NCBI RefSeq assembly: GCF_022965805.1
Contig: NC_133117.1
Coordinates: 11,990,183-12,054,182, forward strand
Direction: 5' to 3'
DNA from: Primulina eburnea
Taxonomy: Eukaryota > Streptophyta > Magnoliopsida > Lamiales > Gesneriaceae
DNA: 64,000 nucleotides
Shown piece by piece: positions 4,089 to 56,827 of the stretch (position 1 is its first letter; every line of letters starts with the position of its first letter). The position numbers and the translations under genes are program-made. Below the pieces are notes generated by a model. The model did no database searches. It was not told the DNA's origin and worked only from the letters and a program-made list of their open reading frames with translations.

Positions 4089-4250
4089 GCTCGGGCGGAC
4101 ATAAAGTTCCGCCCGGGCGCGAAACTCTCGGCCCTGGCATTCTGTTCATTCGCGCTCGGGCGGATATAATGTACCGCCCGGGCGCGAGGTGCTCGGGTTT
4201 CTTCCCTCACTCAATGGCGCTCGGGCGGTCAAAGACTTCCGCCCGGGCGC
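4089..4250. repeat. GC-rich arm-loop-arm repeats in solo LTR
   Basis: Three units (4089-4120, 4151-4187, 4217-4250), each with arm GCTCGGGCGG, a spacer of 10-12 bases and inverted arm CCGCCCGGGCGC. About 30 bp separates the units. They are far more GC-rich than their surroundings. In the LTR's own (minus) direction they precede the A/T-rich TATA-like region. Confidence 0.9.
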
Positions 4251-4386
4251 CAACCCTTCGGCCCAAAATTATATTTTCCATGTATTTTGTCCAATTCGAT
4301 CTCGAAATGGCCCGGCTATTATCCTATTAATTCATACTCAATAAATTCAGCTTAACATGCTATAAAATCTCGGGCATTACACCGTC

Positions 4387-4759
4387 GCTACATTAAAAGG
4401 TAAACCATCGCCGATTCAAATGAGCGACGGTTATTAACCGTCGCTATTCAAACTAGCGACGGTTTATAACCGTCGCTAAAAGTTATCGACGACGGTTTAG
4501 CGACAGTTTTAAACCGTCGCTAATTATAGATCGGCGACAGTTTTAGAAATTCCGTCGCCGATTTAAATAGCGACAGGTTTTTGAAAGACGTCGCCGATTC
4601 AAAACCAGCGCTGGTTTTGTAAACTGTCGTCGATTTAAACGTAGCGACGGTTTTATAATTCGTCGCTAAATTGAAATTTGGTCATTATTCTAGTTTTAAC
4701 TTTTTTAACAGTTCTTGATTGTCTTTTATCCGTTGTCGTTTAGCATTTTTCTTGTAGTG
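4387..4759. repeat. CACTA-type array and inner right terminus
   Basis: After the solo LTR the array resumes with a second motif type, AGCGACGG paired with CCGTCGCT, about 8 copies with varied spacers. It ends in the CACTA-like terminus TTTTTCTTGTAGTG at 4746-4759. Confidence 0.8.
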
Positions 4760-5926
4760 AATTTTTCATAAAACCAATGAATACTTGGTTAAAAATTTCC
4801 TCAAGTATTAAAAAATCATTTTCAGAAAATTGAATCGATGGTAAGATTTTATGTCTGTTCTTTAGGGAATTCGGAATTCCATGGATATGGAGGTTACAAC
4901 TAGAATTTTCTTGCTTATGGAGGGTTAGTTCACAAAATTTTGGGACAAATACTAAAGAGAAGACCCTGATACAGGAAAGCTCTATGGCTCCGAAATTCTT
5001 CAACATATGGAAGAAAAAATTTCTTTATATCATAAAGATTTTAATAAACAACAAGAAAAAGAGCAGGATTCAATGAGTCTTTCAAGCTTCTTACTCCGAA
5101 ATATTCTGATATTTATTCTAAAGAAAAGATGATTGAAGTCTACATTGAAAAACTGAAGAAAGATCTTTATAAGAACATTGCATGTTCTGACTCCAAATCA
5201 GATAAATCAATAGTATCCGAATCAAGTGAAAACCAATTTATCCATCTAATGCAGATGCAAAATGCTCAAGACCCAAAGGAAGATATTCCTTCCCATATTA
5301 GTGATATTTTTGAAAATTATATAAATTCATTAAAAGAAAATATTAAAGATGATTAGGATATTCATCTTTAATAAAGTTGGTGGAATATCACTATATAGAC
5401 TTTTTGACTTTTGTAATCATGTTACTATTTTCTTTTATAAAGCATTGTATTGTTTATATTTTTAGTTGGAATCCTGGGTTTGATGTCCTGCTCTTCCATC
5501 TCTTTATAGGTTGTATTGTGTTTTTAATAGAATACGGACAAGTTTGCTCTCCTCTATTTTCTCTCTGTAAACAACCCTTCTTACGAATTAAATAAAAGCT
5601 TCAAGTTTTGAATACAACTTTGTAAGTTTTTTTTTTTTTATTTCAAAACATGTAAACAACCCCTCTATTGCCACGTTGATGACGAACATGTATCAAGGTC
5701 AATTACAATACTAAATTCAAACTTTTAAAATTTTTGTTTATCGTTGGCATATTTTGGAATATGGATTTTGAAAATAACATAGTCACGGATTTAACGTGGT
5801 AAATATTTTGTTTTCGATTGTAATTTTTGGTTTAATTATTATTATATATATTATAAATTAAAAGAAATTTAATACAAAAATTTTAACTAATGAAAAAAAT
5901 TATTAAAGACAACAGTTTTGGATTTT
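4760..5926 (+). other. Segment held between two CACTA-like ends
   Basis: A non-repetitive segment of 1.17 kb between an inner right terminus (4759) and an inner left terminus (5927). The first 600 bp carry a degraded reading frame in the plus direction that ends in the 5129-5356 ORF. Around 5585-5640 there is an AATAAA followed by a T-rich run. From 5640 to 5926 I see only AT-rich DNA. It could be captured sequence or the remains of an older insertion. Confidence 0.5.
5087..5356 (+). pseudogene. Unrecognised protein fragment, retroelement-like
   Basis: An open frame (75 codons from the first Met at 5129; the same frame is open from about 5087) ends at 5356. It is rich in Lys, Glu, Ser and Asp and contains SDKSIVSESSENQFIHLM near the middle, with an acidic C-terminus. 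Upstream, in other frames, short pieces with Trp and aromatic residues look like the eroded N-terminal part of the same protein. The composition vaguely recalls non-enzymatic parts of plant pararetrovirus-like or other retroelement polyproteins, but I cannot name a family and no catalytic motif is present. An AATAAA about 230 bp downstream would suit a 3' end. Function unknown. Confidence 0.3.
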
Positions 5927-6240
5927 CACAACAAGAAAAATGGTAAAAGATATTCGACAACTATTTAGCGATAGTTTTTTCTCTAACCGTCGCTAAACAT
6001 AGCGACGGTTTTACTTCAACCGTTGCCGATGTATCATTTTGCGACGGTTTAATCTACACCGTCGCTATATTTAGCGACAGTTAAAAAAACCTGTCGCATG
6101 TTTAAAAATAGCGACGGGTTTGCCAAATCCGTCGCTAAAGTTGGCGACGGTTAAATAAAAACTGTCGCAACATTTAGCTACAACTTCGATTAACCGTCGC
6201 CGATTTATAATTTCGCGAAAGTTTATCTAAAACCGTTGCC
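5927..6240. repeat. Inner left CACTA-like terminus and array
   Basis: It begins CACAACAAGAAAAATGG, a one-base variant of the outer terminus, followed by about 8 copies of AGCGACGG/CCGTCGCT-type inverted motifs. Confidence 0.75.
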
Positions 6241-6297
6241 ATTTTCAAAAAAATTCCTTTCCCCCTAAACTTCCCCCCATTTTCTTTCACCACTCTC

Positions 6298-8686: not shown

Positions 8687-10520
8687 TGCAGTGGGGACCC
8701 GTACGCTAATTCATATCTTAATCATCTTTGGGAATAATTGGATCAATTAAAAGAATTGGGTCTAAATTTTTTTATTTTTTTTAAAATACATGTGCGAAAT
8801 ATATTATAATCAATCTGATATAAAAGTCAAAAGTAAAAGTACAAGTCTTGTACAACAGTACGTTATAACAAACTACTGTTCTTTCACTACATACCAGGTA
8901 ATGAAAAAAAACTCTACTTCTGGTCCGAATCTCCATGCTAAACTGCGATATCTCATCCTCTTCTCGACCCTGATCCTGTCCCACCTGTTGTCATGCACAC
9001 ATACAAACACAACAACAGCCGGATGACTCCGGTGAGAATAATATTCCCAGTATAAATAACTTAAACATGCAATCATATAAACATATACAAAAGCATATAA
9101 CAGTTATCAATAACATGTATCAAAATCTGGAAGACATGAATTGATATAAACCATAAGTCAAACTCTTGACTCTTAATCTCTGACTCGACTCTTCTCAAAT
9201 CTTGGGATCCCGGTTTCTAGACATTGGCATACTATATCGAATCTCAGTAATATAAGTCGATCTACTCCTAAGCAACATAGATATAAACCAAACATCCAGT
9301 GCCTTGGCACCTCCGCCAAAGACTTGGCACCTCAGCCAAAGACTAGGCACATCCGTCCATGACTCTTTCTCGATATCTATCTTCTATTATCTGCTTTTCT
9401 ATAAATCAATAGAATAAGCATACACAATCAATGAATTCAAAGGTATTAAACAATACAAATAAGTATGTGGTTTTGGGAAACTCAAGTAGTATCTAACTCG
9501 AGTCGTATCTCCCGGTTCAACATTGATTTACACCTTTCTTTTGTCGGGTTTTGGCTCTATTCTGTCTTTGAAATCTTCAATATCAATCTGGCATAACATA
9601 TTCGATGAATACAATATCAACATATACCCCAATCAATACCAGATATAATCAGAACTCAATCTAATTCTGTTTCAACGGCATAACATCACAGTCTCAATAT
9701 ATCTCGATAATACAATCTCAACAAATACAAATCATAACTCATAATCAACCAACAACAAAATTTGATACCAAATATGTATATTCACAATCAAATTCAATAT
9801 AAAAATCATAAAAAATTCATATGGTATCCGTTCGTCGATCCAGTTTCGATTATACGATGACTAGAGTCTCAGGAACAGATAATATCAGTCATATCATAAT
9901 TCCTTCAATACCATATTTTCATACCATATCAAAACATAAGAAAACTTACGTCTTGTCGAAGCCTCTAACGAAAGGAATACGGTACTGAGCTCGAATAAAA
10001 AATCAGACGGTCGGATTTTGCACAACATCCAATTCTAGATTCAAGACTTGAGAATTCTCTAGAGCTTCCCTCGTTTTCCTCTTTTCCTTTCTGAATTCTG
10101 AAGGAATAACGTCGCTTATTATATATATTATGCATGGAAAAGCCAAGTGGCTCATCTCTTGTGCAGCACGTCTCCCGCATATGCGCAACTTTCCCCGACG
10201 CATATGTGCGAGACCTACTGGTCTCGATGCATCACACTTCAAGTACTCGCGCATATGCGCGCCCTCTCTTCGCGCATATGAGCGAGGTCCTCTGTCATAC
10301 TCGCGTATATGCGCCCTGTCTCCGCCCATATACGCGAGGTTCTCTGCTTGTCTCGCGCATATGGGCGCATCGGTTCCGCGCATATGCGCGAGACCTTCTG
10401 TCCTCGCACACAACAATGCTCATGCTATTCCAAATCGTGTCTCGGAGTGGTCCTTCTATAATCATATCAATTCATAGACAATAATCTCATATTAACAGGA
10501 TATAAATCTCGGGCATTACA
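8687..10520 (-). mobile_element. 5' LTR of gypsy A
   Basis: Plus-strand ends are TGCAGTGGGGACCC and CGGGCATTACA. On the minus strand it starts TGTAATGCCCGAG and ends next to the primer-binding site. It is 1834 bp and clearly homologous to 2346-4381 and 43429-45230. It carries a conserved dyad CCGG-N6-CCGG at 9019-9032 and GC-rich dyad repeats at 10176-10392. The 10110-10130 run 'ttatatatatta' is the probable TATA region. Confidence 0.88.
10176..10392. repeat. CGCATATGCG arm-loop-arm repeats in 5' LTR
   Basis: Four units, each with two copies of a palindrome close to CGCGCATATGCGCG separated by about 10-12 bases, followed by a spacer such as 'accttctgtcct'. The flanking sequence matches that around the CGGGCGG repeats of the solo LTR at 4089-4250, so the same slot holds a different palindrome. 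Confidence 0.9.
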
Positions 10521-16287: not shown

Positions 16288-16756
16288 TGTTGCGCATTTT
16301 CTTGATTGCTCGCAAGTGCACGATGTCAAGTTATAGTAAAATGTAATTTTGAGTACTAGTGTCGATCCCACGAGGAATGTATTTCTAAACTTATATTAGT
16401 GTTTGTAATTGAAATAGTCTCGACTTTATTTAGAATATCAATCGACAGATTTGTTTGCACCAATAACTAGATTGAAAATAAATTTAATTATAGTACCAAA
16501 TAATAGTAAACAACAATGGAATAAAAGATCTAGAGGTCCGATTTCACGCAACTATCCACCATATGTTATTTTGTGTAGCTATATTATAAATGTCCTTCTT
16601 ATTCATTAGCCAAGAATTCTAAATTATCTACTCCTTCTTCCGATTGTTAAGTAGATACTAATTATCTAACAAAGGAGTGTAACATCCCCGTCAACAATAT
16701 ATAATTAAATAACACAATAAGCAATAACTTCTTTTAATGGCTTCAATAGCAATATA
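16288..16756 (-). mobile_element. 3' LTR of E, distal piece
   Basis: Matches 40221-40690 of the 5' LTR closely, including 'gtgtcgatcccacgaggaatg'. It stops at the target duplication ATATA (16752-16756) where element F inserted. Confidence 0.92.
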
Positions 16757-17675
16757 TGATACGAACACGGGTGGTCAAGCCCCAAGGAAAGCATGGGATC
16801 CTTTGCAGTTTCCGGACGGACCAATCACGAGGGGACGACTAAAGAAGTTCAAGGAGGCACTACAAGGAGTCATGAGCAAGCATGAAGGGGTCTTGATGCA
16901 TGGGAGTACGTTGGGAGGCGAAAGGAATATTATTCAAGCATTAGTGAATCAGGCCGAGTCTACACGGATGTGCACACGGACCTGCACACGGGGTCCGTGC
17001 CCTTTACAGCCAAGGATGAAGAATTCCAGTGTCTACACGGACCCAAGCACGGACCAGTACACGGGGTCCGTGTCCTTTGATATTTGCGAAGACAGTGTCT
17101 ACACGGACCTGTACACGGAGGTGAGCACGGGGTCCGTCTCCCTTATTTCCAGCTGAAGTTTAGTTCCCGAGTGTACCGGACCCGGGCACGGACGGCTACA
17201 TGGGGTCCGTGTCAGAGCCGGCTGCGCGAGAAATTTCCTTTCTAGAGTTTTATTATTTTTGGAGACTAGATTCTTGATATCTTTTGTTATTTAAACATAT
17301 TTTGGACGAAAATTTGAACACTTTTTCAGATTATTATTGATATTTTATCATTGTTCTTGAGTTTTTTCTCAAACAATTAAAGCTTTTGCTTTGTCAAACA
17401 AAAATCAAACTTATCAAAGTTTTCAACTTTGTGGCGTTTGTCGATCGTTCTTGTGTGGATTGTCTTAGACTAGTTCTTCGAAGGTTCGTTCTAATCACGA
17501 TTGTTTATTCCGTGTTTATTTGTTGCTAAAATTTTCATAGTTTAGAGGTGAATATCACAACACACACTTGATTCAAAAGGTCGGGACAACACAACGATTC
17601 TTTGTTTGATATTAAATTGAGGGCGCGATTAATTTTTAATCGTGTTTGCTTTTATTCGTACAAAGATTCACATCA
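16757..17675 (+). mobile_element. 5' LTR of F
   Basis: It starts TGATACGAACACGG and ends ATTCACATCA, two bases before the primer-binding site. It encodes a copy of the integrase C-terminal tail in frame (16737-17156) and holds four dyad units around ACGGACC/GGGTCCGTGT (16958-17213). Confidence 0.93.
16958..17213. repeat. GGACC/GGGTCCGTG dyad repeats in F 5' LTR
   Basis: Four units of roughly 60-80 bp, each with ACACGGACC and the inverse GGGTCCGTGT, with spacers such as 'ttccagtgtct'. The same array is at 29408-29664 in the 3' LTR. Confidence 0.9.
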
Positions 17676-17677
17676 TT

Positions 17678-17690
17678 TGGTATCAGAGCC
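17678..17690 (+). promoter_or_regulatory. Primer-binding site of F, tRNA-Met
   Basis: TGGTATCAGAGCC follows the 5' LTR by two bases, the standard initiator tRNA-Met primer site. Confidence 0.93.
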
Positions 17691-17970
17691 AGGTTAATTG
17701 AATTCAAGTAAGTTTATCTTTCATTCTATTAGCAGATCTAATTATCCTTTAATTCCGCTTTTAGATCTGTTTGTTCTATCGTTCTTCGTAATTTTTTTTC
17801 GTGAATCTGTGATTCTCGAAATTTGTTGGTGTTTTTTTTTTTAGGATTTTCGAGTAGTATTCAGCCAAAAAAAAAAGAGTACAAAAATTCCGAAAATTCA
17901 CCATTATTTCTTTTTGATATCTTGTTCTATTTTCTTTAGAGAGTCATAATCAATTACCTCTCACAGTCAA

Positions 17971-18021
<51 letters not shown>

Positions 18022-18336
18022 CATATCTTCGAATTCTTGTCTACACAGTCCAAGTGAGTCGGTCGCATTTGTTCCCAAGTTGGGAATTGATTGTTTGATA
18101 TACTCAAATACAAAGGTTGAGAACACCTTCGAGAGAAGCATCAAATTCGAGTGGAAACATTTGAGTGAGTGTTATTTCTTTGGAGTGACTAGTGAGTATT
18201 TGTTGTGAGCAAAAAAAAAAAAATAGGAGAGGAGAGGAGAGACGAGTGAACTTCTTTGGAGTGACCGTGAGCATTTGGGTGAGGACTATTTTTGTTTTCT
18301 ACTAACGTTTTCTTGCAGGTACAAATCCAAAATTAA
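17691..18336 (+). other. Untranslated leader of F
   Basis: An AT-rich leader between primer site and gag, with poly-A/T runs, a (TA)n tract at about 17972-18019 and a short GAGAGGAGAG purine repeat near 18228. No ORF of note. Confidence 0.7.
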
Positions 18337-21300
18337 ATGGAGAGGGAGGTAGGAGATAGTTCGAATTCGGGGTTGCCTAAGGTCCAAATGGATGCGTTGT
18401 TGGGGCATTTTAGTAGGATGATGACGACCCAAATTGAGTCATTGCATGAAAGTTTGGATAAGCTTGAGGTTGGTGTTAGTGGGAGTAAATCTAAACCTAG
18501 GGATTTGGGTAGAGATGATGAGGAATGTGATTTGGGAGGAGACGAGGAGAGTCAAAATGAGAATTGGGGTAGAAATGGAAGAGGTAGAGGAAGAAGGGAA
18601 GCCATGCGAGGTAGATATGAGGAGACTAGGGAAGATGGTCACATGGGTAGCATTAAGATGAAAATACCATCGTTCCATGGGAAATCTGACCCGGAGGCAT
18701 ACTTAGAGTGGGAAAAGAGGGTAGAGTTCGTATTTGAATGTCACCACTACTCCGAACAAAAGAAGGTGAGGTTGGCGGTGGTTGAATTCTTAGACTATGC
18801 TCTCATTTGGTGGGATCAACTAGTGACCACTAGGAGGAGGTGTAATGAGAGACCCATTGAATCTTGGGATGAGGTGAAGAGGGTAATGAGGAAGAGGTTT
18901 GTGCCCAATAACTATTATAGGGAGATGTTCAAGAGGTTACAAACTTTGAGGCAAGGGGTAAAGAGTGTGGAAGACTACTATAAGGAGATGGAAGTAGTCA
19001 TGATTAGGGCAAATATTGAGGAGGATAGTGAGGCGACCATGGCCCGTTTTCTTTGTGGTTTGAACAGGGAGATACAAGATCAAGTGGAGCTGCGGCACTA
19101 CTTAGATCTAGACGAGATGGTGCAAATGGCCATAAAGGTGGAGCAACAACTCAAGAGGCGAGGAGTTGGCCGCACCAATCAAACTGGGGGTGCATCATCT
19201 TCTTGGCGGTCAGGTGGAGCGAAGCGTGAGGAAAATAAAGTGGTGGCCAAGCCAAGATTTGACACTAAGCAAGAGGTACCTAAGCGAGGAGTCCAAGGTA
19301 AATCTGAAACTCCTTCTAATCGTTCTAGAGATACTAAATTTTTTAGGTGTCAAGGGTTGGGTCATATTGCTAGTGAGTGTCCTAATAAGAGGGTGATGTT
19401 TTTGAATGATTATGGTGAGTATGAGTCTCAAAGTGATGGAGATGGTGAGGGTATTGATGGTGATATGCCTGCGTTGGAGGATCCCGATGAGGGATATGGG
19501 GCGGTTGTAGGAGAAGCGCTAGTGACTAGACGTATCATGAGTGCCCAAGTCAAGGATGATGAGGCTAGCCAAAGAGAGAATTTGTTCCACACTAGATGTT
19601 TTGTGAATGGTAAGGTTTGCAATATAATCATAGATGGGGGTAGTTGCACTAATGTGGCTAGTGTTGAGATGGTGGAGAAATTGGGGTTGCCTACAATAAA
19701 ACACCTTCAACAATATAGGCTTCAATGGTTGAATGATTGTGCGGAGGTGAAAGTGAATAGGCAAGTTCTAGTTGCGTTTTCAATTGGGAAGTATATTGAT
19801 GAGGTGATGTGTGATGTGGTGCCAATGCATGCTTGCCATATTTTGTTGTGTAGACCTTGGCAATTTGATAGGCACGTTACTCATGACGGGTTCAAAAATC
19901 ATTACTCATTTACTTTAAAGAAAGAAACCATTGTATTGCTTCCTTTGTCCCAAAAGCAAGTGTTGGAGGACCAATTGAAAAAGAAAAAGAGAGATGAGGT
20001 CGAAAAAAAGAGTGAATTAAAGAGTGAGGTGGCCTTAGAAAATAAAAATGAAATGGCTGAAAAAAAGAGAGATGAAAAGAGTGAGATAGCCATACAAAAG
20101 AAAAAAGAGAGGAAAGAAATTGAGGGGAAAGAAAAAGAGAGGAAAGAGGCCAAAAAGAAATCATATATGGCCCAAAAAAGTGAGTTGAAACAATTGTTAC
20201 ACACACATGAGCCACTTGTGTTGATTCTTTACAAGGAGATCCTCCTAAACACAAGTGATATAGTCGGGTCTCTCCCGAGCATTGTTGTTTCCCTTTTGCT
20301 GGAATTTGACGATATATTTCCAGAGGAGCTACCTCAAGGGCTACCACCATTGAGGGGGATCGAGCACCAAATTGATTTGGTGCCCGGGAGTGTATTGCCA
20401 AATCATCCGGCCTATAGAAGCAATCCGGAGGAGACTAAGGAGCTTCAACGGCAGGTAAGTGAATTGTTAGATAGGGGTTTTGTGCGTGAGTCCATGTCAC
20501 CTTGTGCGGTACCTGTTTTATTAGTTCCTAAGAAAGATGGCTTATGGCGTATGTGTGTAGATTGTAGGGCAATCAATAACATAACCATTAAGTATAGGAA
20601 TCCCATTCCTAGACTAGATGATATGTTAGATGAATTGCATGGTGCTTGCATCTTCAGAAAGATTGACTTGAGGAGTGGTTATCACCAAATTAGAATGAGG
20701 GAAGGTGATGAGTGGAAAAATGCTTTTAATACCAAGTATGGGTTATATGAGTGGATGGTCATGCCATTTGGCTTAACTAACGCTCCTAGCACTTTTATGC
20801 GGTTAATGAATCATGTTTTGCGTGCACACATAAGGAAATTTGTTGTGGTTTACTTTGATGATATCCTAGTGTATATCAAAAATTTGAAAGAGCATGTTAA
20901 CCATTTGAGACTTGTGCTAATCACTTTAAGGGCTGAAAATTTATATGCTAACTTGAAGAAATGTGATTTTTGTACTAGCAAACTTGTCTTCCTTGGGTTT
21001 GTGGTAAGTTCACAGGGTATACACGTTGATGAATACAAGGTAAGTGCTCTTCGAGATTGGCCAACGCCTACTACTGTTGGTCAAGTTCGAAGCTTTCATG
21101 GTCTTGCAAGCTTCTATAGGAGGTTTGTAAAGGACTTTAGCATATTGGCGGCACCGATGACGGCGGTGATCAAGAAGAACGCTCCATTCCATTGGGGCGA
21201 GGAGCAAGAGAAGTCCTTTAATCTCATTAAGCAAAAATTAATTAATGCTCTTTTACTTGTTTTACTTGATTTTGCTAATACGTTTGAAATTGAATGTGAT

Positions 21301-21921
21301 GCTTCAGGTGTAGGTATTGGTGGAGTGTTGATGCAAGGAGGGCGGCCGGTTGCATACTTTAGTGAGAAGCTTAATGGAGCGGCCTTGAATTATCCCACAT
21401 ATGACAAGGAGTTCTACGCGCTTGTGAGTACCTTAGAGACGTGGCAATACTACTTGAGGCCTAAGGAGTTTGTGATTCACACGGATCATGAGTCTCTTAA
21501 GCACCTTAAGGGCCAACAGAAGTTGAACAAGTGGCATGCCAAGTGGGTGGCGTTCATAGAGACGTTCCCCTACATCATCAAGTACAAGCAAGGTAAGGAA
21601 AATGTAGTGGCCGACGCACTATCACGAAGGTACATACTAATCTCTACCTTGGAGTCAAAAATTTTGGGGTTTGAGCATGTGAAGGAACTGTATGTGCTAG
21701 ATGAGGACTTTAAGAGTTTGTTTAAAACTTGTATGCATGGTCCACATGAGAAATTCTACTTGCATCATGGTTTCCTGTTTAGAGAAGATAGGTTGTACAT
21801 CCCTAAATCATCCATTCGTAAACTACTTGTTAGGGAGGTACATGGGGGTGGTTTAATGGGACATTTTGGTGTGGCTAAAACTTTAAGTGCATTGCATGAA
21901 CATTTTATTGGCCACACATGA
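18337..21921 (+). CDS. F gag-protease-RT-RNase H polyprotein, copy 1
   Basis: A 1194-residue frame starting [12 protein letters not shown]. Gag occupies about residues 1-330 ([20 protein letters not shown]). A zinc knuckle follows near 338-350 with its first Cys replaced by Phe ([15 protein letters not shown]). Protease is near 430-530 ([13 protein letters not shown]). A very charged Lys/Glu linker spans about 546-611. RT is at about 680-870 with YFDDILVY, and RNase H at about 980-1090 ([31 protein letters not shown]). The integrase HHCC region begins near 1170 ([10 protein letters not shown]). One T lost near 21905 shifts the frame, ending the ORF at 21921. RT substitutions such as FRKIDL for FSKIDL suggest decay. 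The start is the first Met after the leader. Confidence 0.92.
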
Positions 21922-40078: not shown

Positions 40079-40196
40079 GCACTGTTAAACAAAGATAAGA
40101 AAAAAAATCAATGTTTAATGTAAAACAGCAAAAACAGCTCTAAATTAAAATCTAGACTAATTGGTAACAATACTAATATAAATTTATAATAAACAC

Positions 40197-40214
40197 TCCC
40201 CGGCAACGGCGCCA
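40197..40214 (-). promoter_or_regulatory. Primer-binding site of E, tRNA-Asp type
   Basis: The minus strand reads TGGCGCCGTTGCCGGGGA, the Athila/Tat primer site, six bases inside the 5' LTR edge at 40221. The same site occurs in element D at 55485-55502. Confidence 0.9.
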
Positions 40215-40220
40215 AAAACT

Positions 40221-41517
40221 TGTTGCACGTTTTCTTGATTGCTCGCAAGTGCACGACGTCAAGTTATAGTAAAATATAATTTTGAGTACAAGTGTCGATC
40301 CCACGAGGAATGTATTTCTAAACTTATATTAGTGCTTCTAATTGAAATAGTCTCGACTTTATTTAGAATAATCAATTGACATATTTGTTTGCACCAATAA
40401 CTAGATTGAAAATAAATTTAATTATAGTACCAAATAGTAGTAAACAACAATGGAATAAAAGATCAAGAGGTCCGATTTCACGCAACTATCCACCATATGT
40501 TATTTTGTGTAGCTATATTATAAATGTCCTTCTTATTCATTAGCCAAGAATTCTAAATTATCTACTCCATCTTCCGATTGCTAAGTAGATACTAATTATC
40601 TAACAAAGGATTGTAATGTCCCCGTCAACAATATATAATTAAATAACACAATAAGCAATAACTTCTTTTAATGGCTTCAATATCAATATATGTCCTCCCG
40701 AACTATATAAATACCATCGATGTATTTTTCCTTTCTTGTTTATAAATTCCCTTTTCCAAGTGATAAATTTTAAACATAAGAATCATTCAAGCTAAGGCCA
40801 GTAAAATGAAAGCATTAAGATTTGAAAAATACAAATGAACAATAAGGAAAACTTATATAGCATAATTCATAAATCCCAACACATGGTTTCTAGTCTTGTT
40901 CCATCTTTCCTCTAGAAATAAGAATTAGTTCATAATAATACAAACAACACAACATCACATGAATCTTAAACAAGACATATTAAATAAAAATAAAGAAAGA
41001 ATAACTTAGAACAAGAGTTTGGTGTGCAAGATATTTCTCTCCAGAAGTGTGCAAGAGATTTCCTAAGAATGATGCACTTGGATCTTCAATCTTCTAGCCT
41101 CCACTAATCTTCCCTTGGATCCTCAATACCCTAGATAGTAAATAATAGAAGCCTTTTATAGTCCTAGACAAGTCTTTGCACGCAAAACACAAAAGTCATC
41201 AACTCCCATGCGTAGCACACCAAATTTCATAATTTCCGGACTTTGTCTGTCAAAGACCGCGGGTGCGGTACAGCTTCGGCAAAAATTCTTGCACATTGAC
41301 CGTGGGTGCGGTCTCTTTGTTAGCGCGGGAGCGCTGCAGCTTCGGCCTTTTTTTATCTTTTACACTTCCAATTCAACAATTTACTACTCCAAATTCTCAT
41401 TCTAAGCTTCCAAACTATAACAACAAAAACAACAACAAATCACTTAAAACCTGCTCAAGAATCACAAAATTCCAAGTTAAAAACAAGTAATAAAAGTACA
41501 ATAAATTTCACTTATCA
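40221..41517 (-). mobile_element. 5' LTR of E
   Basis: 1297 bp, TGTTGCACG to CACTTATCA on the plus strand, followed by the duplication ACTTC. It is near-identical to the interrupted 3' LTR except for scattered substitutions and about 91 bp fewer dyad repeats (41255-41345). Confidence 0.93.
41255..41345. repeat. Dyad repeats in E 5' LTR
   Basis: The ACCGCGGGTGCGGT array reduced to about one and a half units, against three units in the 3' LTR. Confidence 0.9.
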
Positions 41518-41718: not shown

Positions 41719-44700
41719 CATCTAGAGACGAACCGTGTCTTAAAATAATATTATTTTAATATTTGCGGAAAAATTTAAAATTTTCTTATTAAATAATGTT
41801 ATTATAAATATAAATCGCAAAATAAATAACGGTTACCACGCATACTAAAATAATATTAATATTAAAATTCTATCATCTTAAATATGACAACCATAAAATC
41901 CCAATTTAAAAGCATCCACCATAATTTGAAAATGTCTAACTTATATAGAAATTTTAGCATGCTAGTCCCAAAAATCAGTGCAATAAAATTTGAGAAAATA
42001 GTTTTAAACGTGCATAAATAAAATCCCATAAACTAGAAGGTCCTCGGGTTTGCATAGCCACTGGCCCGAGACTGTTCACTGGTCATCGCCTCTCGTCTCC
42101 TCTACTATATCATCTGCATTGATTAAGTACAGTGAGCCTAATGACTCAGCATGCATAAATCGCGAATAACAAGTAATACGTAATAAAATCAATGCAATTT
42201 AAACTTAGTTCGTGCGTAAAATATTATAATCATAAATATTTATAAGGTGACTTTCTTGCATAAACCATTCATAAAAATAATAAATCATATTTCATACTTT
42301 TCATGCATAATCGTAAACGTAAATAATTTTTTGTAGAGTTTTGTTTAACGCAAGTAGCCCAAAACATAAATCGTTTGATCAAACTAAACAACAATACTAG
42401 GTTGGCAGGGATCACCACAGCTCTTGGACTGGATGTCCGCTCCCAAACATAACATAATTCCTCCGAAGAGGTTGGAGAGGTCCCCGGACACATTCTCTGG
42501 CTTCCAAACCCGTAACATAATTTGGCCACAAAACAAATTGCATACCTCAAAAATAATTGTTTTGCACGTCATACATACTTACGGATATCGTGAACCTCGT
42601 TGGATTGTCCTGGACATGCTTCCACAAATTTATAATTTAACCAATCAACTATAGCCCCGAAGGCTCACTCGGACAGATACTATTCTCGGATTAAATAAAT
42701 AACTTACGACTTGCCAAACGACTCAATACTCAAACCATACTTAGCCAACATCCTAACCCACTGTCCAAGAGCCTAAGACAACCCCGAACCATGACAAAAA
42801 CCCTTAAACCATGAACAACACCCAACGCCTGAAAACGACTCATGGAGACAAAATACGACCCATATACGCTTCTCACGACTTCACGCCTAAACCAACGTGA
42901 ACAGGACCCGAAACAAGCCCTACACTCGAACCTTATACTCAACTTAAGCCCCTGGTCCAGCCCAAACCTGTGCCCAAGTCACACAAAACCAGTAAGACCC
43001 TGACAGCCCCTCATGTGAGGGCCAATTCTGTTCAGCTGTAGTTTTTCTGGTTCCAGCCACCTATCTGCCACTACAGGCCATGAAACATCATAACAAGACT
43101 CATCCTAGGACCCTAAGAAATTCCCCAAACTATAGACAAGAACCATAGTCCAACCATATGCTGAACCACAAGATCGAACACCTATAGCCCCTTACATGCA
43201 CCTGAACCTGCGCATGTCCGCTTTTTTCTGTCCCAATGCTTTTCCAGTCCAGCCACACCTTGAACAACCTTAACTAGGGTTGTCCTAGGACTCTTAGAGA
43301 CTACCTAAACCGTAGGCCTGAGCCGAAGTCCAGTCCCTGCACTCAACCAAGCGACAAAACCCAAGAACAGCACCTACATACCATTATTCACGCCTCCTAC
43401 TTCCCACGCTAAAAAAAAAGTTGCTGACTGTAAGGCCCGAGATTATATCACTTTAATCCGAGATTATTTAATTTACGAATTTTGGAATGATGAATTAAAT
43501 TCCACGATTTTTATAATTAAGTAGGATTGAAATTGAATTAAAAAAAGTTATTGAGGGCTGAATTGCAAATAGTGAAGAATCCAGGGACTAAAGTGCAAAT
43601 TATGACTTGGTGGGACACTTGTCATGCTTTGACATATAAAAGTTTCAATTCCTTCACTTTCCTCCAGCAAGAACCGAGACAATTTCTCTGAAATTCCCTC
43701 AAAGCATCATTTTTTTTAGAATTTTGATTGTGTGAGTTCGATTATCAGATTTTGATTTCCGGACACGGTACTGTACTCCTCTCATTGACCGCTACAACTG
43801 GATGTAAGTTTTATTGAGTTTTGTTATCATTTGAAATTCTGATATTGGGAGAATTATTATTTGATCATTATTATGTGTTCTGGGAATACTACAAATCGTA
43901 GAATCGAAACCGGATTGAAGAACAGATTGATTATGAAATTGTTATGATTTTCTGATTATATTGATTGAGATTGGACATATTTGGATTATAGACTGATTAC
44001 AAATTGTATCGGATATGGGTTATGATTTGTAATGGATATCTGGTGATATTGTATTGACGGGGTTATCGAGACTGTATCGTTATGTCGTCGAAACATCAGT
44101 TGAATTAGATTGATCAGATTCAGTAATGATTTCGATTGTATCGTGATATCGTTGATATGAATTAGATTGTACCTTGTTCAGATATGGATCAGATTATATA
44201 CTGATTTGAGTATTGATCAGAACAGGTTTTGAATTGAGATATATACTGATATTGTATCTATGTGATTGTCATTGCCAGACTGGGTATGGATAGATCAGAA
44301 TACAAGACTTCGTCTTTGTCAGACCGAGAAGACAAAGGTATAAATAAATGTTGATTCGGGATTGCACAACTCGAGTTAGGTTTGACTTGAGTTTCCCAAA
44401 ATCGCATACTATATTTTATTGCATTGATATTTGCAGATTATCAGATTGATATGTTTAGTCTATTGAATGATAGCAGAGCCAGAGTTTGAGTCTAGGACAG
44501 ATCAGCCTAGCTAGGGCAGAACCGCCAAGTCTTGGACAGAACTGCTAAGACCCTAGACTTGTGGTATACCGATGAGCTTAGATGTAGATCGACGTCTATT
44601 GTAGACACTCGATATAGCATGCCCAAGTCTAAGTCTTTGTCAGAACTGCTAAGACCCTAGACTTACGGTGTATCGATGAGCTTAGATGTAGATCGACGTC

Positions 44701-46206
44701 TATTGTAGACACTCGATACGGCATACCAAAGTCTAAATTAGATCGGGATCCCTAGATTAGAAATAAGATAAGATCAGATAACGTGTCATTGATTCATGTA
44801 GTCAGATTAGATACATGTTTTAATGTTTGGTTATGCTTTTATATATGTTTTATATGATTGCATTTATACATTGTTTATACTGGGATATTTATATCTCACC
44901 GGAGTTATCCGGCTGTTGTCTTGTTTGTATGTGTGCATGGCAACATGTGGGATAAGATCAGGGTCAAGAAGAGAATGAGGCTGGACTAGATAGCGTGGAG
45001 ATCCGGGCTTCAGAAGCAACTTAGGATTCAGTACGGATATGTAGTTGAACCTAGTTGAATTATTGTAGATCATACAATAATTGTATGTTATGTTTAATAT
45101 GTAATTTGAATTTAATTATATTACGTTTCCGCTTTGTATTTAAAAACAAAAATTTAGACCCTGTTTATTCTAATTGTTTGAAATATTCCTAAAGATGATT
45201 AAGGAATGAATTAGCGTCCGGGTCCCCACACTGACCATACCTGGATCACTTACCAGTGTCTAAACACACCCTAATTCATGGCCATACACAGTAGTAGCAG
45301 CCCAGGCGATCCAACCGAAGTCTTCGATCGAGAATCCTCAAGAACACTATATTCTTGCACTAAATTTTCAGAAAACGGTTTCAAATCCGTTTGCATAATT
45401 TCTTGCACATAAAAAATGAATTTTCATGCATGATTTATATCAAAATACATAATATAACATGATCGATGCATTAAAGAAAATTTTAGACATGCCTTTGCAT
45501 TAAAATACACGAATTATCGAATATGGACGCGGGGAAGAACAAAGGACAAACTGAGGGCATTGCGCTGCATTTTTCTTGCTTCAAGGATCTAAAATCCTTC
45601 AGAATAATGGGGTGATGTTTTGGTAATAGTGGTTGCTATAAAAAGGAGCCAAAAGAATCCAATTCACCAATTACGTATTTTATGTGCGTGTGGCTTGTGT
45701 GTGTGTTCAATGTGTGGGTTGTGTGTGGCCGTGGGTTTTATGTCTAGGATATGGCAGGACTCTTGTATTTAAATGGGATAATGATTAGGTTTTTTAGTTT
45801 AATTAAAACACTAATTAAATTTACTATTTTAGCCCTCCAACTTTTGAAATTAAGGGTCCTACAAATTTTAAAATTCTACCAATAAATAAATACTACCCAA
45901 TTTAATTAAGTCATAAAAATAATTATAAAAATATTTTATTTCGCATGGACATATTTAAATCCCTTATTTTCAAGTTTTGTTAATTAAAATACTTTATATT
46001 TCTATTTCACTCGATAAATTAAATATATCCATAAAAATGCTAAAATTTATAAATCTTTTAAAATCCTATTTTCTTGACTTAAAATAAAAATATGACTTAA
46101 AATTTTAACATCTTAATCGTCTATAGTCTTCTTTCCCGGTTCTGTAGCGAGCATTAATTCGTCTGAAAAACTAAACTCGAGAAAACATTTTAAATTACAT
46201 GATAAA

Positions 46207-51325: not shown

Positions 51326-52645
51326 TGGTGTGCTGTCGTTATGCCACCAAATTAATTCCTACCCTTTTAAATAAAACTAGTGCAATGGTGAGTAGGGTCG
51401 AATCCACAGGGAACGGGAGATTTATTTCTTTCGAGTAAAATGCAAATAAAGGGGGGATTTGTTTGATAAAAACTAATATTAGAACTAATTTAACATGCAA
51501 GAAGAAATAACAAAATCAAGATGAATAACTAATTAAATGTAAATTAATATTACTAAGCTCGATTCAAGGGATTTCTACTATTCAATTGTATCACTGTTCA
51601 TCGGCTAACATATATTTATTCATGCAATTACAAGCAATTAACTTTAGAATTATAGGGATAGCCGCTAAAATTCTTGTGTTTTCCTAAAATAATTGACCAA
51701 ACCCAGCATCCAGTCAAAACTTATTAATAATTAACTGGGCACGATAGCGTTCCATATTAATTAAAAATAGCATTTTCGTTTTGTGAAAACAGTTAATCCT
51801 AAATCTAACAACCGAGATAGCTGCAATTGATAGATCGCGTTTCGTTGATTTATTTAGATTAAATATGCTATGATAGCACAACACACCTAATCTATCGCTA
51901 CTCATGTTCCAATCATTCATGACAATTACGGATCACTGAATTCATGGATAGCAGTAGAAAATTATATATCGAATTAAATTGTCAGATTAATCAACATACA
52001 ACTTTCATATAAATAAATCATAAATCAACAAATACTTGAACAAAGCACAAATTTTAAATTAAAGCACAAAAGCCTCACAGTGATAAATCGAATTAGTAAA
52101 AAATATCCCTTGAATCAAAAACTAATACTTAGCCTAAAGTTGTGGAAAGAGTTGGAGAGAAAATCTTGAGCCTCCTTGTTCTTGTGTTACGTGAGATTGG
52201 TTGGAAGATTGTAGAAAGCTTTCAATTTTGATTTTTCTCAAATCTTGTGTGCGGCTGTGTCTCTCCTTTTCAATTGAGTAGTGGATTTGGGTTTTATTAA
52301 GCTAACAAGCCCAATAATACTTAATTAACCTAATTCTTAAAATATAATATAATAGATAATATTTTATCTATATTTTCCTTTCTTGCAATTTTTTGGCAGC
52401 TGAAGTATCATCATAAGGCGTGGCCACGCCTTATTCCAGGACTTCTTCTGGTTTGGTCATTCACTTTGAACTCTATCTTGGAAACTTCAAATGTGATAAA
52501 CATCACTTTTTTAGCTCAAATTTGTTCCAAGACCGTAAAAGTTCCTCCTACAATAAAATTACACAAAAATGTGTCAATTAAACATATCGGAGGTTAAAAT
52601 AACGGGAAATATGAAAATAAAATATTAACTATTACAAGCCTATCA
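51326..52645 (-). mobile_element. 3' LTR of D
   Basis: TGGTGTGCTGTCG to AGCCTATCA on the plus strand. It holds a perfect 20-bp palindrome TAAGGCGTGGCCACGCCTTA at 52414-52433. Confidence 0.95.
52414..52433. repeat. 20-bp perfect palindrome in D 3' LTR
   Basis: TAAGGCGTGGCCACGCCTTA, repeated in the 5' LTR at 56596-56615 and, as part of larger dyads, at 54192-54426. Confidence 0.95.
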
Positions 52646-52660
52646 AAATCTCCCACACCT
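52646..52660 (-). promoter_or_regulatory. Polypurine tract of D
   Basis: The minus strand reads AGGTGTGGGAGATTT, adjoining the 3' LTR edge. Confidence 0.85.
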
Positions 52661-54191
52661 AAACGATGCTTGTCCTCAAGCATAAAATAGATCAACTCAT
52701 TATCTCAATTTTCGTCCTCCTTCCGCTTCCTCTACTTATCCAAAACATTTTTCATGCAGGAAGAAAATTTAAATTCAGAGCACCTCACAAAATAACATCA
52801 TGAACAATCACTGTAATCAGAATGTGTAGAGATTAAAATGTATGGGATTTAACAACTCCTCACAAGATTCGCTCATTCCGCTCATCAGTGTCTAGGATAT
52901 CTATCAACAAACTCTCATGTCAAATGCATTGAAAATTCTTACCATATGCTTGCAAATATATCACATCCTTCACTAAATGAATGGATTAAAATACACAAAC
53001 AAAAAGGGCTATAAATGGGTTGTAACGTGGCTAGGGGTAAGGTAGAATAAAGGAAATAATGAGCTATGGAATTGGAGAAACCATATGCACTTTTCACAAA
53101 AACAATTGCATCCAAATAATAACATCTTCAACCTCATTATAACATCAAGAGCCCTCTTTTTTTTTTCTATTTGTTTGCTCTTCTTTTCTTTTTCACTTCG
53201 TCTACTTCTCTTCTTTCTCTTTCTTTTTTTTGTTTTTGTTTTTGTTTTTTTTTGTAGACGGTTACTATAAGGATTCGAGATTGAATAAATCCCAACAATT
53301 CACATTATTTTGGATTGAATGATGCTATTTATGAAAATTTTATATGATTTTCCAATTCAAGGTTCAAAAAGAGGGATAACCAACAAAAAGGATTTGACAC
53401 GGCTTGTAATGTGGCTATTTTCATTCAAAGAAAAAGGCTGAGGCTCAAACTTGGTTAATTAGAGGTCTAGGAATCAGGGTAGGCTCAACGAACGGCTCAA
53501 ATGATGCGAATGAAAATGGTTTGAACTTATTGCCCTTATCGTTTTGTTTATGCACCTAATCCACCACAAAGTGTTGACAAGGACATGTATAACAATGCAA
53601 GTTCTAGAAAAATTAACAATGCAATGACAACACACAATCAAAGAAAATGGAGCATGATATCATGATTGCTCATAGGCTCAAAGCTCACCAAAGAAAAAAT
53701 ATAGCAATTGTGTTAAATCCCACACACTTGTCATCTCTAACTATCATCAAGAGCAACTTATTCATAATGCAAACGTGAGAATGCAAAAACATTTGCACGC
53801 AAAGAAAACATCATTTTTTTTTTCGCATCGGAAGCAATCAGGATTCAGAAGAAAGTGATAACAAATGGACTAGATGCTAGGAACTAACAACGTCACTATT
53901 TTTTTTATTACTTTTATGCAAAAAATGAGAAGAAAAAAAAATTAAAACGAGAAATAAGGCAATATACCCTCCCACACCTAAATGTGGCAATGTCCTCAAT
54001 GACACAAAATTAGATGCACAACATAGACAGTAAAAGCAAACAAAGGAAGTTAGAGAACTCCCCTGAAAATTGTTGGGCATCATAGAGCAAGGTGTCCTAT
54101 TGCTGTGGTGGACGCTGCTGCGAGAGAGAGGAAAAAAAATAGGTTAATTTTTTTATTTTTGTTTTTAAAGAAAAGGAAAAAAATCTCCCAG
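52661..54191 (-). other. Non-coding interior of D
   Basis: An AT-rich stretch of about 1.5 kb with pyrimidine runs (about 53155-53255). No domain is recognised. A fragment 'ctcccacacctaaatgtggcaatgtcctcaat' near 53968 echoes the polypurine-tract region, suggesting an internal duplication of 3' sequence. Confidence 0.55.
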
Positions 54192-54426
54192 CAGTAGAGG
54201 TATTTGAATAAGGCGTGGCCACGCCTTATGTGAAAACCTCTACTGGAATTTTTTTTTTTTTCAAATCAGTAGAGGTGTTTCAACAAGGCGTGGCCACGCC
54301 TTGTGCGAAAACCTCTACTGGAATTTTTTATTTTTTTTATTTTTTATTTTTTATTATTTTTTTTTTTTTGCGCAGAAGTGTTATTCTTATAAGGCGTGGT
54401 CACGTCTTGTTAGAAGACATATTCTG
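54192..54426. repeat. Nested-stem dyad repeats, internal array of D
   Basis: Three units (54192-54245, 54267-54320, 54370-54426). Each has an outer inverted pair CAGTAGAGGT/ACCTCTACTG (degenerate in the third) around the inner palindrome AAGGCGTGGCCACGCCTT, with T-rich spacers between units. Confidence 0.92.
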
Positions 54427-54556
54427 CACAAAGGTAATAAAAATTGTACTATGTGAAAAAAAAAATAAAAGAAATTAAAAACAATAAGAACAAGAAATTT
54501 GGGTTGCCTCCTAAAAGCGCTTGATTTTTAGTCGTCAGCTTGACCCTCAAAAGCAC

Positions 54557-55369
54557 TCATTCAAAGAGCGGCTGACGCCCAAAGTACGTGTCATATGACA
54601 CCATAAATGGGTCTTGGTTCCATGTGCCCTCAAGTTTGGCTTGATGTATACGATGTAAGCTCGTCTCCTCAACAAAACGTGACTTTAAATAATAGGCATG
54701 AGATGAGAGTATCATCGTTGGCTCTTGAAGAACAAAATCTGTTGAAATCGGCAATGATGAAAGACAAGGATCTCTTAGATGTATGTATGATAATGTTATC
54801 GACGAGCTCATATCGATAGTCTCAGGAGCTTGTTCATCTCTCAACTTCATTGGTGCCTCCTCTTCGTGTGATATTTCTTCCAAAACTTCTTCAGACTGAG
54901 GCTGAACAGTTTCCTCATTCAATGCCACACGCTTGTTTACCATATCATTCAATCGACTTATGATTATTTCAAGACTATATCCCTCATCTTCTTGATGCTC
55001 GAAAGGTTGGTCTGTAAAATCAGATTGGCTAATTTCTGGAGGGTATTGGTGGCTCCAACTCTGCAGCGAAGGATTCCAATATTGATGGTAGTCAAAGTCG
55101 GCCATATCATTTAGCAAATATATCACACCGTCTTCATGTCGACTAAGTAATGGACTACCAGTTGTCAGTGCTCCATTAAATACCCATCTTCGTGTAACTG
55201 CATCCAAACCTTTAAGGAAAAGTCGAATAAGAACATAGTTAGAAAAATCATGATTCCTGAATGTTGTTATTAAATTATTGAATCTCTCCCATGCTGCGTA
55301 GAATGGCTCTCCGTTTTGTTGAGCAAAGGTTGTGAATACTTGTCGATGAAACATCTCGAAGTATTTCAC
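54557..55369 (-). CDS. D gag-like protein
   Basis: A 270-residue frame. The N-terminal half matches the Athila-type gag core: FAQQNGEPFYAAWERFNNLI, RNHDFSNYVLIRLFLKGLDA, then ALTTGSPLLSRHEDGVIYLL at the position of the conserved AAGG block. The C-terminal half is acidic and low in pattern (NEETVQPQSEEVLEEISHEE). It is shorter than the 383-residue gag of E and lacks the usual N-terminus, so it is either truncated or starts further upstream in another frame. It is the only coding remnant of D and may act as a packaging-competent gag or be a relic. Confidence 0.75.
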   Translation of the reverse strand: MKYFEMFHRQVFTTFAQQNGEPFYAAWERFNNLITTFRNHDFSNYVLIRLFLKGLDAVTRRWVFNGALTTGSPLLSRHEDGVIYLLNDMADFDYHQYWNPSLQSWSHQYPPEISQSDFTDQPFEHQEDEGYSLEIIISRLNDMVNKRVALNEETVQPQSEEVLEEISHEEEAPMKLRDEQAPETIDMSSSITLSYIHLRDPCLSSLPISTDFVLQEPTMILSSHAYYLKSRFVEETSLHRIHQAKLEGTWNQDPFMVSYDTYFGRQPLFE

Positions 55370-55484
55370 AATAAAAAATTATCAAATTCTTCTTTTCTTG
55401 ATAAAATCACCTGCACAAGAAGAATGAGACAAAAAAATAATAATAATAATAGCAAAACTCGAAAAAAAACTAACCTTGCACCGT

Positions 55485-55502
55485 TCCCCGGCAACGGCGC
55501 CA
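55485..55502 (-). promoter_or_regulatory. Primer-binding site of D, tRNA-Asp type
   Basis: The minus strand reads TGGCGCCGTTGCCGGGGA, five bases inside the 5' LTR edge at 55508. Identical to that of E. Confidence 0.92.
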
Positions 55503-55507
55503 AAATT

Positions 55508-56827
55508 TGGTGTGCTGTCGTTGTGCCACCAAATTAATTCCTACCCTTTTAAATAAAACTAGTGCAATGGTGAGTAGGGTCGAATCCACAGGGAACGGGA
55601 GATTTATTTCTTTCGAGTAAAATGCAAATAAAGGGGGGATTTGTTTGATAAAAACTAATATTAGAACTAATTTAACATGCAAGAAGAAATAACAAAATCA
55701 AGATGAATAACTAATTAAATGTAAATTAATATTACTAAGCTCGATTCAAGGGATTTCTACTATTCAATTGTATCACTGTTCATCGGCTAACATATATTTA
55801 TTCATGCAATTACAAGCAATTAACTTTAGAATTATAGGGATAGCCGCTAAAATTCTTGTGTTTTCCTAAAATAATTGACCAAACCCAGCATCCAGTCAAA
55901 ACTTATTAATAATTAACTGGGCACGATAGCGTTCCATATTAATTAAAAATAGCATTTTCGTTTTGTGAAAACAGTTAATCCTAAATCTAACAACCGAGAT
56001 AGCTGCAATTGATAGATCGCGTTTCGTTGATTTATTTAGATTAAATATGCTATGATAGCACAACACACCTAATCTATCGCTACTCATGTTCCAATCATTC
56101 ATGACAATTACGGATCACTGAATTCATGGATAGCAGTAGAAAATTATATATCGAATTAAATTGTCAGATTAATCAACATACAACTTTCATATAAATAAAT
56201 CATAAATCAACAAATACTTGAACAAAGCACAAATTTTAAATTAAAGCACAAAAGCCTCACAGTGATAAATCGAATTAGTAAAAAATATCCCTTGAATCAA
56301 AAACTAATACTTAGCCTAAAGTTGTGGAAAGAGTTGGAGAGAAAATCTTGAGCCTCCTTGTTCTTGTGTTACGTGAGATTGGTTGGAAGATTGTAGAAAG
56401 CTTTCAATTTTGATTTTTCTCAAATCTTGTGTGCGGCTGTGTCTCTCCTTTTCAATTGAGTAGTGGATTTGGGTTTTATTAAGCTAACAAGCCCAATAAT
56501 ACTTAATTAACCTAATTCTTAAAATATAATATAATAGATAATATTTTATCTATATTTTCCTTTCTTGCAATTTTTTGGCAGCTGAAGTATCATCATAAGG
56601 CGTGGCCACGCCTTATTCCAGGACTTCTTCTGGTTTGGTCATTCACTTTGAACTCTATCTTGGAAACTTCAAATGTGATAAACATCACTTTTTTAGCTCA
56701 AATTTGTTCCAAGACCGTAAAAGTTCCTCCTACAATAAAATTACACAAAAATGTGTCAATTAAACATATCGGAGGTTAAAATAACGGGAAATATGAAAAT
56801 AAAATATTAACTATTACAAGCCTATCA
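55508..56827 (-). mobile_element. 5' LTR of D
   Basis: 1320 bp and almost identical to 51326-52645. Contains the palindrome at 56596-56615. U5 side holds 'gggtcgaatccacaggga', a motif also seen in modified form in E ('gtgtcgatcccacgagga'). Confidence 0.95.

What the first reader, a model, noticed from the sequence alone, without database searches (positions are those of the whole stretch)
4089..56615. Private GC-rich dyad repeats in four unrelated LTR families
Families A, D, E and F each carry tandem units built on a different dyad: CGGGCGG/CCGCCCG and GCGCATATGCGC (A), GGCGTGGCCACGCC (D), ACCGCGGGTGCGGT (E), and GGACC/GGGTCCGTGT (F). The layout is similar every time: two GC-rich arms about 8-20 bp apart, then a roughly 15-40 bp AT-richer spacer, in an otherwise AT-rich LTR. 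The sequences do not look homologous between families, so the architecture appears to be acquired or selected repeatedly. Possible roles (inference) are protein-binding dyads, RNA hairpins in LTR transcripts, or methylation-linked control.
Basis: partly seen in the sequence, partly recalled or inferred. Interest (0 to 1): 0.85.

Follow-up and report, generated by a model that had tools for sequence, protein, structure and literature searches.

The report
Paired GC dyads at retrotransposon promoters
Several families of plant jumping genes carry rows of short GC-rich mirror-image DNA sites just upstream of their promoters, many of them obeying one hidden spacing rule, much like arrays already described in another retrotransposon group; they probably bind a protein that controls the promoter.

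Summary
The dyads are real and well above chance, but the reading changes in two ways. (1) They look like promoter arrays: in U3 upstream of a TATA or TATA-like site and, in elements D, E and relatives, a second array with the same dyad lies between pol and the 3' LTR; in E and relatives it precedes a core-promoter-like sequence and an extra ORF (PF20167). (2) They are not all unrelated: both A variants, E and two further classes share one core, CGC-N4-GCG, in pairs 22-23 bp apart; N4 and flanks are private. Genome-wide: 51,139 pairs at 22 bp, 45,219 at 23 bp, 96 at 25 bp. D and F use other dyads (329 and 5,755 exact sites; reversed patterns 0). In one LTR lineage the dyad is swapped at the same place (12 versus 7 of 20 sampled LTRs); a homologous LTR in the window (A3) has none. 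Closest known: Sirevirus (Ty1/copia) repeated-motif boxes, private palindromes before the TATA box and before ENV. This is a Ty3/gypsy counterpart with a stricter grammar. A paired dimeric factor reading duplex DNA is most likely but unproven; hairpin/siRNA roles remain open.

The parts
2346..4381 (-). A1 solo LTR (TSD CCGTC at 2341-2345 and 4382-4386), inserted in a CACTA-like element
   Evidence: flanks printed; homology to A2 and A3; TIR-like CACTACAAGAAA ends read by eye
4090..4250 (-). A1 dyad array: three pairs of CGC-YCGR-GCG 22 bp apart (LTR positions 133/155, 198/220, 263/285)
3923..4032 (-). TA repeat downstream of the A1 array in LTR sense, at the place of the TATA box
8687..10520 (-). 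A2 LTR, followed in sense by a PBS-like TGGTATCAGAGC
   Evidence: LTR end read by eye
10170..10400 (-). A2 dyad array, CGC-ATAT-GCG and variants
43429..45230 (+). A3 solo LTR (TSD CTGAC), homologous to A1/A2, without the GC dyad array
   Evidence: 0 cores; 0 dyads
16288..41517 (-). element E (TSD ACTTC), split by element F; LTR pieces 16288-16756 and 30127-31050 (3' LTR) and 40221-41517 (5' LTR)
   Evidence: domains
30680..30880 (-). dyad array in the E 3' LTR (ACCGCACCCGCGGT in sense)
41250..41335 (-). dyad array in the E 5' LTR (2 CGC-N4-GCG cores)
34279..34597 (-). internal E array between pol and the extra ORF
34260..34278 (-). TTTTAAAAA, TATA-like, just after the internal array, followed by a CT-rich leader (L035 is this locus)
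32876..33752 (-). extra ORF region (frame broken by stops); open piece 32876-33376 matches PF20167 Transposase_32, 89 bits
16757..30126 (+). element F (TSD ATATA), LTRs 16757-17675 and 29207-30126, Ty3-type gag-pol, PBS-like TGGTATCAGAGCCAGG
16963..17213 (+). F dyad array in the 5' LTR, CACGG half-sites 12 bp apart, CACGG-N3-CCGTG at 16987 and 17060
29413..29664 (+). F dyad array in the 3' LTR, CACGG-N3-CCGTG at 29437, 29510, 29650
51326..56827 (-). element D (TSD AATGA), LTRs 51326-52645 and 55508-56827, 99.92% identical; gag-like ORF 54557-55378 without a Pfam hit
52417..52430 (-). GGCGTGGCCACGCC in one D LTR
56599..56612 (-). GGCGTGGCCACGCC in the other D LTR
54192..54410 (-). internal D array: two full dyad units 75 bp apart (54212, 54287) and a third, decayed one

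Best explanation
The arrays are upstream promoter elements of Ty3/gypsy-type LTR retrotransposons: clusters of sites, read in double-stranded DNA, for a dimeric protein that works in pairs. In the A variants, E and two further classes each site is CGC-N4-GCG, and two of them 22-23 bp apart form the unit; N4 and flanks differ by family. The array lies in U3 before the TATA box. In elements with the extra PF20167 ORF it is repeated before a second, internal promoter that would drive that ORF. Shown: sequence, gap, spacing, position, one dyad shared by both places in the elements tested, and swapping of the dyad in one LTR lineage. Inferred: that a protein binds, that it is a host factor, that it activates, that the internal site is a promoter, and that N4 turnover reflects escape from silencing or change of partner.
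For: Core CGC-N4-GCG observed/shuffle mean: A1 56/2.3, A2 39/4.2, E internal 112/3.7, E LTR 111/2.7, AGCGCC class 9/1.2, G internal 35/0.8, G LTR 29/0.7, L070 11/2.1. Gap specific: 327 for N4 against 3, 5, 1 and 83 for N2, N3, N5, N6 in 70 stretches. Pairs genome-wide: 51,139 at 22 bp (reversed pattern 651), 45,219 at 23 bp (3,316), 96 at 25 bp (167). TATA[AT]A after the last core: A sample 16 of 20, 49-127 bp, median 55; E LTR 30 of 30, 24 of them at 95-98 bp; D TATA-like 12 of 20 at 47-74 bp. Internal arrays: loose TATA-like site within 45 bp in 27 of 30 E loci, exact TATA[AT]A at 11 bp in 2 of 4 G and at 37 bp in 1 of 4 AGCGCC-class loci, with CT-rich leaders by eye. Same dyad upstream of the PF20167 ORF and again about 3 kb downstream, where the 3' LTR is expected, in 6 of 7 loci fetched. 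In 3 of 4 G loci the internal array is inverted relative to the downstream one, as duplex sites allow. E centre ACCC is 92-99% conserved in LTR units, as high as the arms (units were picked with <=5 mismatches, which favours this).
Against: No binding, expression or methylation data. A3, a homologous LTR, has no array. D and F do not fit the CGC-N4-GCG rule. G LTRs (0 of 4), 3 of the 19 A LTRs with arrays, and F show no TATA[AT]A in the stretch read, and exact TATA[AT]A follows E internal arrays in only 3 of 30, 298-668 bp away. L070 has an internal array but no copy was found in the 2.5 kb further downstream. LTR limits of L065-L071 were not mapped. Two-sided changes at E positions 2/13 and D pair 3/22 would also suit pairing in RNA. 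Only three spacings were tested genome-wide.
Confidence: 0.58

Rival explanations
1. The arrays matter as hairpins in RNA (or single strands): a structure in LTR or 3' transcripts, or a template from which the host makes small RNAs that silence the element.
For: Arrays fold better than shuffles on both strands for one locus each: A1 z -6.4 sense/-9.3 antisense, A2 -8.4/-11.3, E LTR -6.0/-2.9, E internal only -2.3/-1.1. Two-sided changes at E position 2/13 (LTR: C-G 109, G-C 24, G-G 9, C-C 1) and D pair 3/22 (T-A 12, T-G 4, C-G 4). In maize Sireviruses small RNAs are reported in excess over palindrome clusters (Bousios 2016, as described in PMC10760457, passages).
Against: No lean to G.U over A.C in E arms overall: A.C/G.U 28/14 (LTR), 46/39 (internal), 20/37 (post-pol sample). 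In A1 pairs 20 of 34 outer-N4 positions are A.C in sense, though these are G.U in antisense. The E centre is as conserved as the arms. A 22-23 bp rule with 25 bp nearly empty is not needed for hairpins.
Confidence: 0.2
2. The extra-ORF protein (PF20167) or another element-encoded protein is the binder and co-evolves with its private sites, as TnpA-type or VANC-type proteins do with theirs (recalled).
For: In the seven loci the class of dyad follows the PF20167 clade: E class 82% identical to each other, G class 84-98%, E to G 34-37%, L070 42-45% to E.
Against: Whole-element descent alone gives that pattern. Element F, read here, has gag-pol only, and the A lineage shares the CGC-N4-GCG rule with E although no such ORF was seen with it (A internal regions were not searched).
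Confidence: 0.12
3. Neutral tandem expansion: GC-rich inverted units spread by slippage, template switching or conversion, without function.
For: Unit number varies between copies: 3-6 in E LTR loci, 7-16 in E internal loci. [quoted passage not shown]
Against: Same gap and pair spacing in two LTR lineages and at two places in the element; dyad replaced while LTR sequence on both sides stays alignable; position before TATA sites.
Confidence: 0.1

Closest known systems
Sirevirus repeated motif (RM) boxes, Ty1/copia (Bousios et al. 2010, PMC2829016; abstract and passages, sections 9, 10, 19, 20 read)
   Same: Palindromes private to each family, many copies, CpG-dense, in the first half of the LTR before a TATA box; extra copies before the ENV gene in ENV-bearing elements; an internal promoter was proposed there.
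   Different: Ty3/gypsy-type elements here; core CGC-N4-GCG in pairs 22-23 bp apart (A, E, G, AGCGCC classes) instead of CGG-CCG; the ORF is PF20167. F (CACGG-N3-CCGTG) has a CGG-CCG core like theirs. The paper calls RM Sirevirus-specific, comparing with other Ty1/copia elements. No spacing rule in the sections I read.
5' CpG island of Del LTRs, Ty3/gypsy (Cruz et al. 2014, PMC4029996; passages)
   Same: CpG-rich, variable region in the 5' part of the LTR, proposed as a 'moving target'; A LTRs begin TGTAATGCCC, 8 of 10 letters as the Del U3 att TGTAACACCC.
   Different: The passages mention no palindrome or spacing; eudicot Del elements there had no such island. Whether A is Del was not tested by phylogeny.
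Additional ORFs with their own promoter between pol and 3' LTR, e.g. maize Grande gene23 (described in PMC7264820, passages; the 2013 paper itself not seen)
   Same: An extra gene after pol driven by an upstream internal promoter.
   Different: Grande's gene is antisense to gag-pol; the E ORF is in sense. No dyad array is mentioned in the passages seen.
[quoted passage not shown]
   Same: Family-specific tandem repeats in the same region.
   Different: No link to LTR motifs or to a promoter in the passages seen; the usual ORF there is antisense TRP28.
Subterminal repeats of CACTA transposons (recalled)
   Same: Tandem and inverted short GC-containing motifs; such arrays also stand in this window.
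   Different: DNA transposons; sites bound by an element protein.

Membership tests
Sirevirus RM boxes | host element is a Sirevirus (Ty1/copia) | tested here: not met
   E and F carry Ty3-type domains: gag, RVT_1, RT_RNaseH, integrase with H2C2, SH3_Tf2-1 in F; the RVT_2 (copia) hit at 62286-63050 is another element
Sirevirus RM boxes | private palindromic motif in many copies in the LTR | tested here: met
   D has only one per LTR
Sirevirus RM boxes | CGG-CCG core | tested here: not met
   A, E, G and AGCGCC classes have CGC-N4-GCG; F alone has CGG-N3-CCG
Sirevirus RM boxes | located upstream of a TATA box | tested here: met
   A 16 of 20, E LTR 30 of 30, D 12 of 20 TATA-like; not seen for G LTRs (0 of 4) or F
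Sirevirus RM boxes | extra copies before the additional (ENV) gene | tested here: met
   E in the window; 7 of 7 PF20167 loci fetched, out of 150 listed matches; the gene is PF20167, not shown to be ENV
Del/Tekay lineage (for A) | conserved U3 att at the LTR start | tested here: inconclusive
   8 of 10 letters shared with TGTAACACCC
Del/Tekay lineage (for A) | RT/RNase H phylogenetic placement | not tested
   no reference set in the tools; not attempted
Tat/Athila group (for D and E) | long region after pol with an extra ORF | tested here: met
   E: PF20167 piece after integrase; D has lost pol and the ORF
Tat/Athila group (for D and E) | RT/RNase H phylogenetic placement | not tested
   placement rests on the PBS-like sequence (recalled as typical) and the extra ORF

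The most novel reading that the evidence does not exclude
One host DNA-binding protein, a dimer that reads CGC-N4-GCG and acts as two dimers 22-23 bp apart, is exploited by separate Ty3/gypsy lineages of this plant at both their LTR and internal promoters; the lineages keep changing N4 and flanks, to dodge small-RNA silencing, while arms and spacing stay fixed.
Probability: 0.3. Interest if true: 0.82.

Novelty: new variant of a known kind. Interest (0 to 1): 0.62.

Why it matters
It turns a 'CpG-rich, hypervariable LTR start' into a testable grammar (arm, N4, 22-23 bp), extends the Sirevirus layout to Ty3/gypsy-type elements, gives a concrete candidate for the internal promoter of extra ORFs, and offers about 96,000 natural site pairs with which to find the factor and to ask whether silencing drives the turnover of N4.

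Tried and rejected
Rfam scan of the window at gathering scores: 0 matches. 'Private motifs with nothing in common' was dropped. A shared spacer element (GCCGA, GACAGA, GGCAGA or GCCAGA within 22 bp before a pair) held only in A1 14 of 17, A2 3 of 13, E internal 20 of 39, E LTR 16 of 34, G LTR 0 of 14, G internal 1 of 17 and is not claimed. Strict helical phasing: best periods A 10.1, E internal 10.3, E LTR 10.5 (R 0.66-0.70), but G 14.8; not claimed. Folding z-scores do not separate the hypotheses. L070: no downstream copy of its dyad in 2.5 kb more; unresolved. F rests on two LTRs in the window and the genome count.

Literature searches: (open-licence PMC papers only). The one paper holding all of Ty3, gypsy, palindromic, LTR, CpG island and TATA box was PMC2829016. 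None of the listings or passages seen describes CGC-N4-GCG pairs. Bousios 2016 (PMC4728375) is not held and was not read; Macas et al. 2009 on variable 3' UTRs of plant retrotransposons is recalled only.

Sampling limits: searches list matches of the 40 best candidates. The A sample is every 5th of the first 100 listed of 3,205 places, all on C1; the post-pol sample every 5th of the first 100 of 327, on C1-C6. A: 12 A1-type, 7 A2-type, 1 without (L076, by eye interrupted after about 130 bp; not tested). Post-pol: 15 E class, 4 AGCGCC class, 1 without (L111, by eye interrupted; not tested). D: 20 of the 38 listed LTRs that are not the window's; 13 exact, 4, 2 and 1 with one, two and three mismatches. 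E internal and post-pol sets share some elements. Copies are related, so Fisher values are not used.


Full report
What is in the window. It lies in an 812-Mb genome, by its elements a plant. Self-comparison, flanks and domains give: A1, a solo LTR 2346-4381; A2, an LTR 8687-10520; A3, a solo LTR 43429-45230; D, an element with LTRs 51326-52645 and 55508-56827 (99.92% identical) and only a gag-like ORF; E, a Ty3-type element 16288-41517 with gag, RT, RNase H, integrase and an extra sense ORF with PF20167, split by F; and F, a Ty3-type element 16757-30126. LTR ends and duplications (CCGTC, CTGAC, AATGA, ACTTC, ATATA) were read from the flanks.

More than chance? Yes, with a caveat. In A1, A2, F and the E post-pol stretch none of 60 shuffles reached the observed number of GC-rich dyads; the same test scores 0 in the D LTR, D internal region, E 5' LTR and A3, because it is blind to D's AT-rich outer arms and E's 5-bp arms, and because A3 has no array. 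D and E stand on their copies: 329 exact sites against 0 reversed for D, 20 of 20 other D LTRs within three mismatches, and E-class dyads in 30 of 30 LTR and 30 of 30 internal loci, found with queries that contained them. F's dyad has 5,755 exact sites against 0 reversed.

A hidden common rule. A1 (CGC-YCGR-GCG), A2 (CGC-ATAT-GCG), E (CGC-ACCC-GCG), a class from PF20167 loci L066-L069 (CGC-TAGG-GCG with CGC-CCCA-GCG, here 'G') and a class with CGC-CTAG-GCG or CGC-CGAG-GCG share arms and gap. Observed against shuffled counts run from 9/1.2 to 112/3.7; D and F have none. The gap is specific: 327 for N4, against 3, 5, 1 for N2, N3, N5 and 83 for N6, in 70 stretches. Pairs stand 22 or 23 bp apart: 51,139 and 45,219 in the genome, 96 at 25 bp; the reversed patterns give 651, 3,316 and 167. 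Only these three spacings were counted genome-wide. In the samples further distances gather near 30-31, 42-43, 49-54, 64-67 and 70-77 bp.

The dyad is swapped in place. Of 20 sampled A-lineage LTR starts 12 are A1-type, 7 A2-type, 1 has no array. A1 and A2 LTRs align over positions 1-92 and again from 451/394 on, but not across the array; A3 aligns to A2 on both sides and has no array. So the array is a replaceable module, and the lineage can exist without it.

Two places before core promoters. In A (16 of 20), E (30 of 30) and D (12 of 20) a TATA or TATA-like site follows the LTR array; it was not found for G LTRs (0 of 4), three A LTRs with arrays, or F. Between pol and the PF20167 ORF a second array ends before a TATA-like sequence with a CT-rich leader; in most E loci this is a TTTTAAA-type site (27 of 30 by a loose pattern), exact TATA[AT]A being found in 3 of 30 and far away. 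The dyad of the internal array recurs about 3 kb after the ORF start, where the 3' LTR is expected, in 6 of 7 PF20167 loci fetched of 150 listed; LTR limits were not mapped there, and L070 is undecided. Of 20 post-pol sites 19 have a dyad array. D, which has lost pol and the ORF, keeps its dyad in LTR and interior.

Mechanism. Sharp spacing, a conserved centre in the E unit, inversion of the internal array in 3 of 4 G loci and position before core promoters point to a protein reading duplex DNA. The same grammar in lineages that differ in structure points to a host factor. The hairpin rival keeps support: folding and two-sided changes at E 2/13 and D 3/22; A.C and G.U counts in E arms lean no way overall (94 to 90). 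No step from binding to activation is shown.

Known relatives. The layout matches the Sirevirus RM boxes closely (PMC2829016): private palindromes before the TATA box and before ENV, with an internal promoter proposed but not identified. It differs in the kind of element, the core of most classes and the pair spacing. Del LTRs have variable 5' CpG islands (PMC4029996, passages), and an extra gene with its own promoter is known from Grande (described in PMC7264820, passages). I rate it a new variant of a known kind.

Noticed in passing
window 19355-28793: Element F holds three head-to-tail copies of a 3.15-kb stretch (97.7-97.8% identical) that spans RT to integrase.
   Followed up: no
window 1736-2345, 4382-7215, 46692-48541: CACTA-like elements with their own tandem inverted motifs (GACAACGGTTTT..AAAACCGTTGTC, GCGACGGTT..AACCGTCGC), TRF periods 32-54 bp; a second private-dyad system in the same window.
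   Followed up: no
G000, 25-bp spacing hits, e.g. C2:13597101, C4:5750322: Several of the few 25-bp pairs are near copies of one sequence with CGC-ACAT-GCG and CGC-GCAT-GCG sites, perhaps another family with its own spacing.
   Followed up: no
L073-L112, spacers before dyad pairs: GGACAGAA or GCCGAAG-like words often precede A1 and E pairs but rarely A2 or G pairs.
   Followed up: partly
L070 400-900: A PF20167 locus with a dense array of long dyads (AGCGCCTCGGCGCT, GCCTCGGCGCCAGATTTG); no LTR copy was found.
   Followed up: partly
window 44527-44736: The array-less A3 LTR has a 104-bp tandem duplication elsewhere in the LTR.
   Followed up: no
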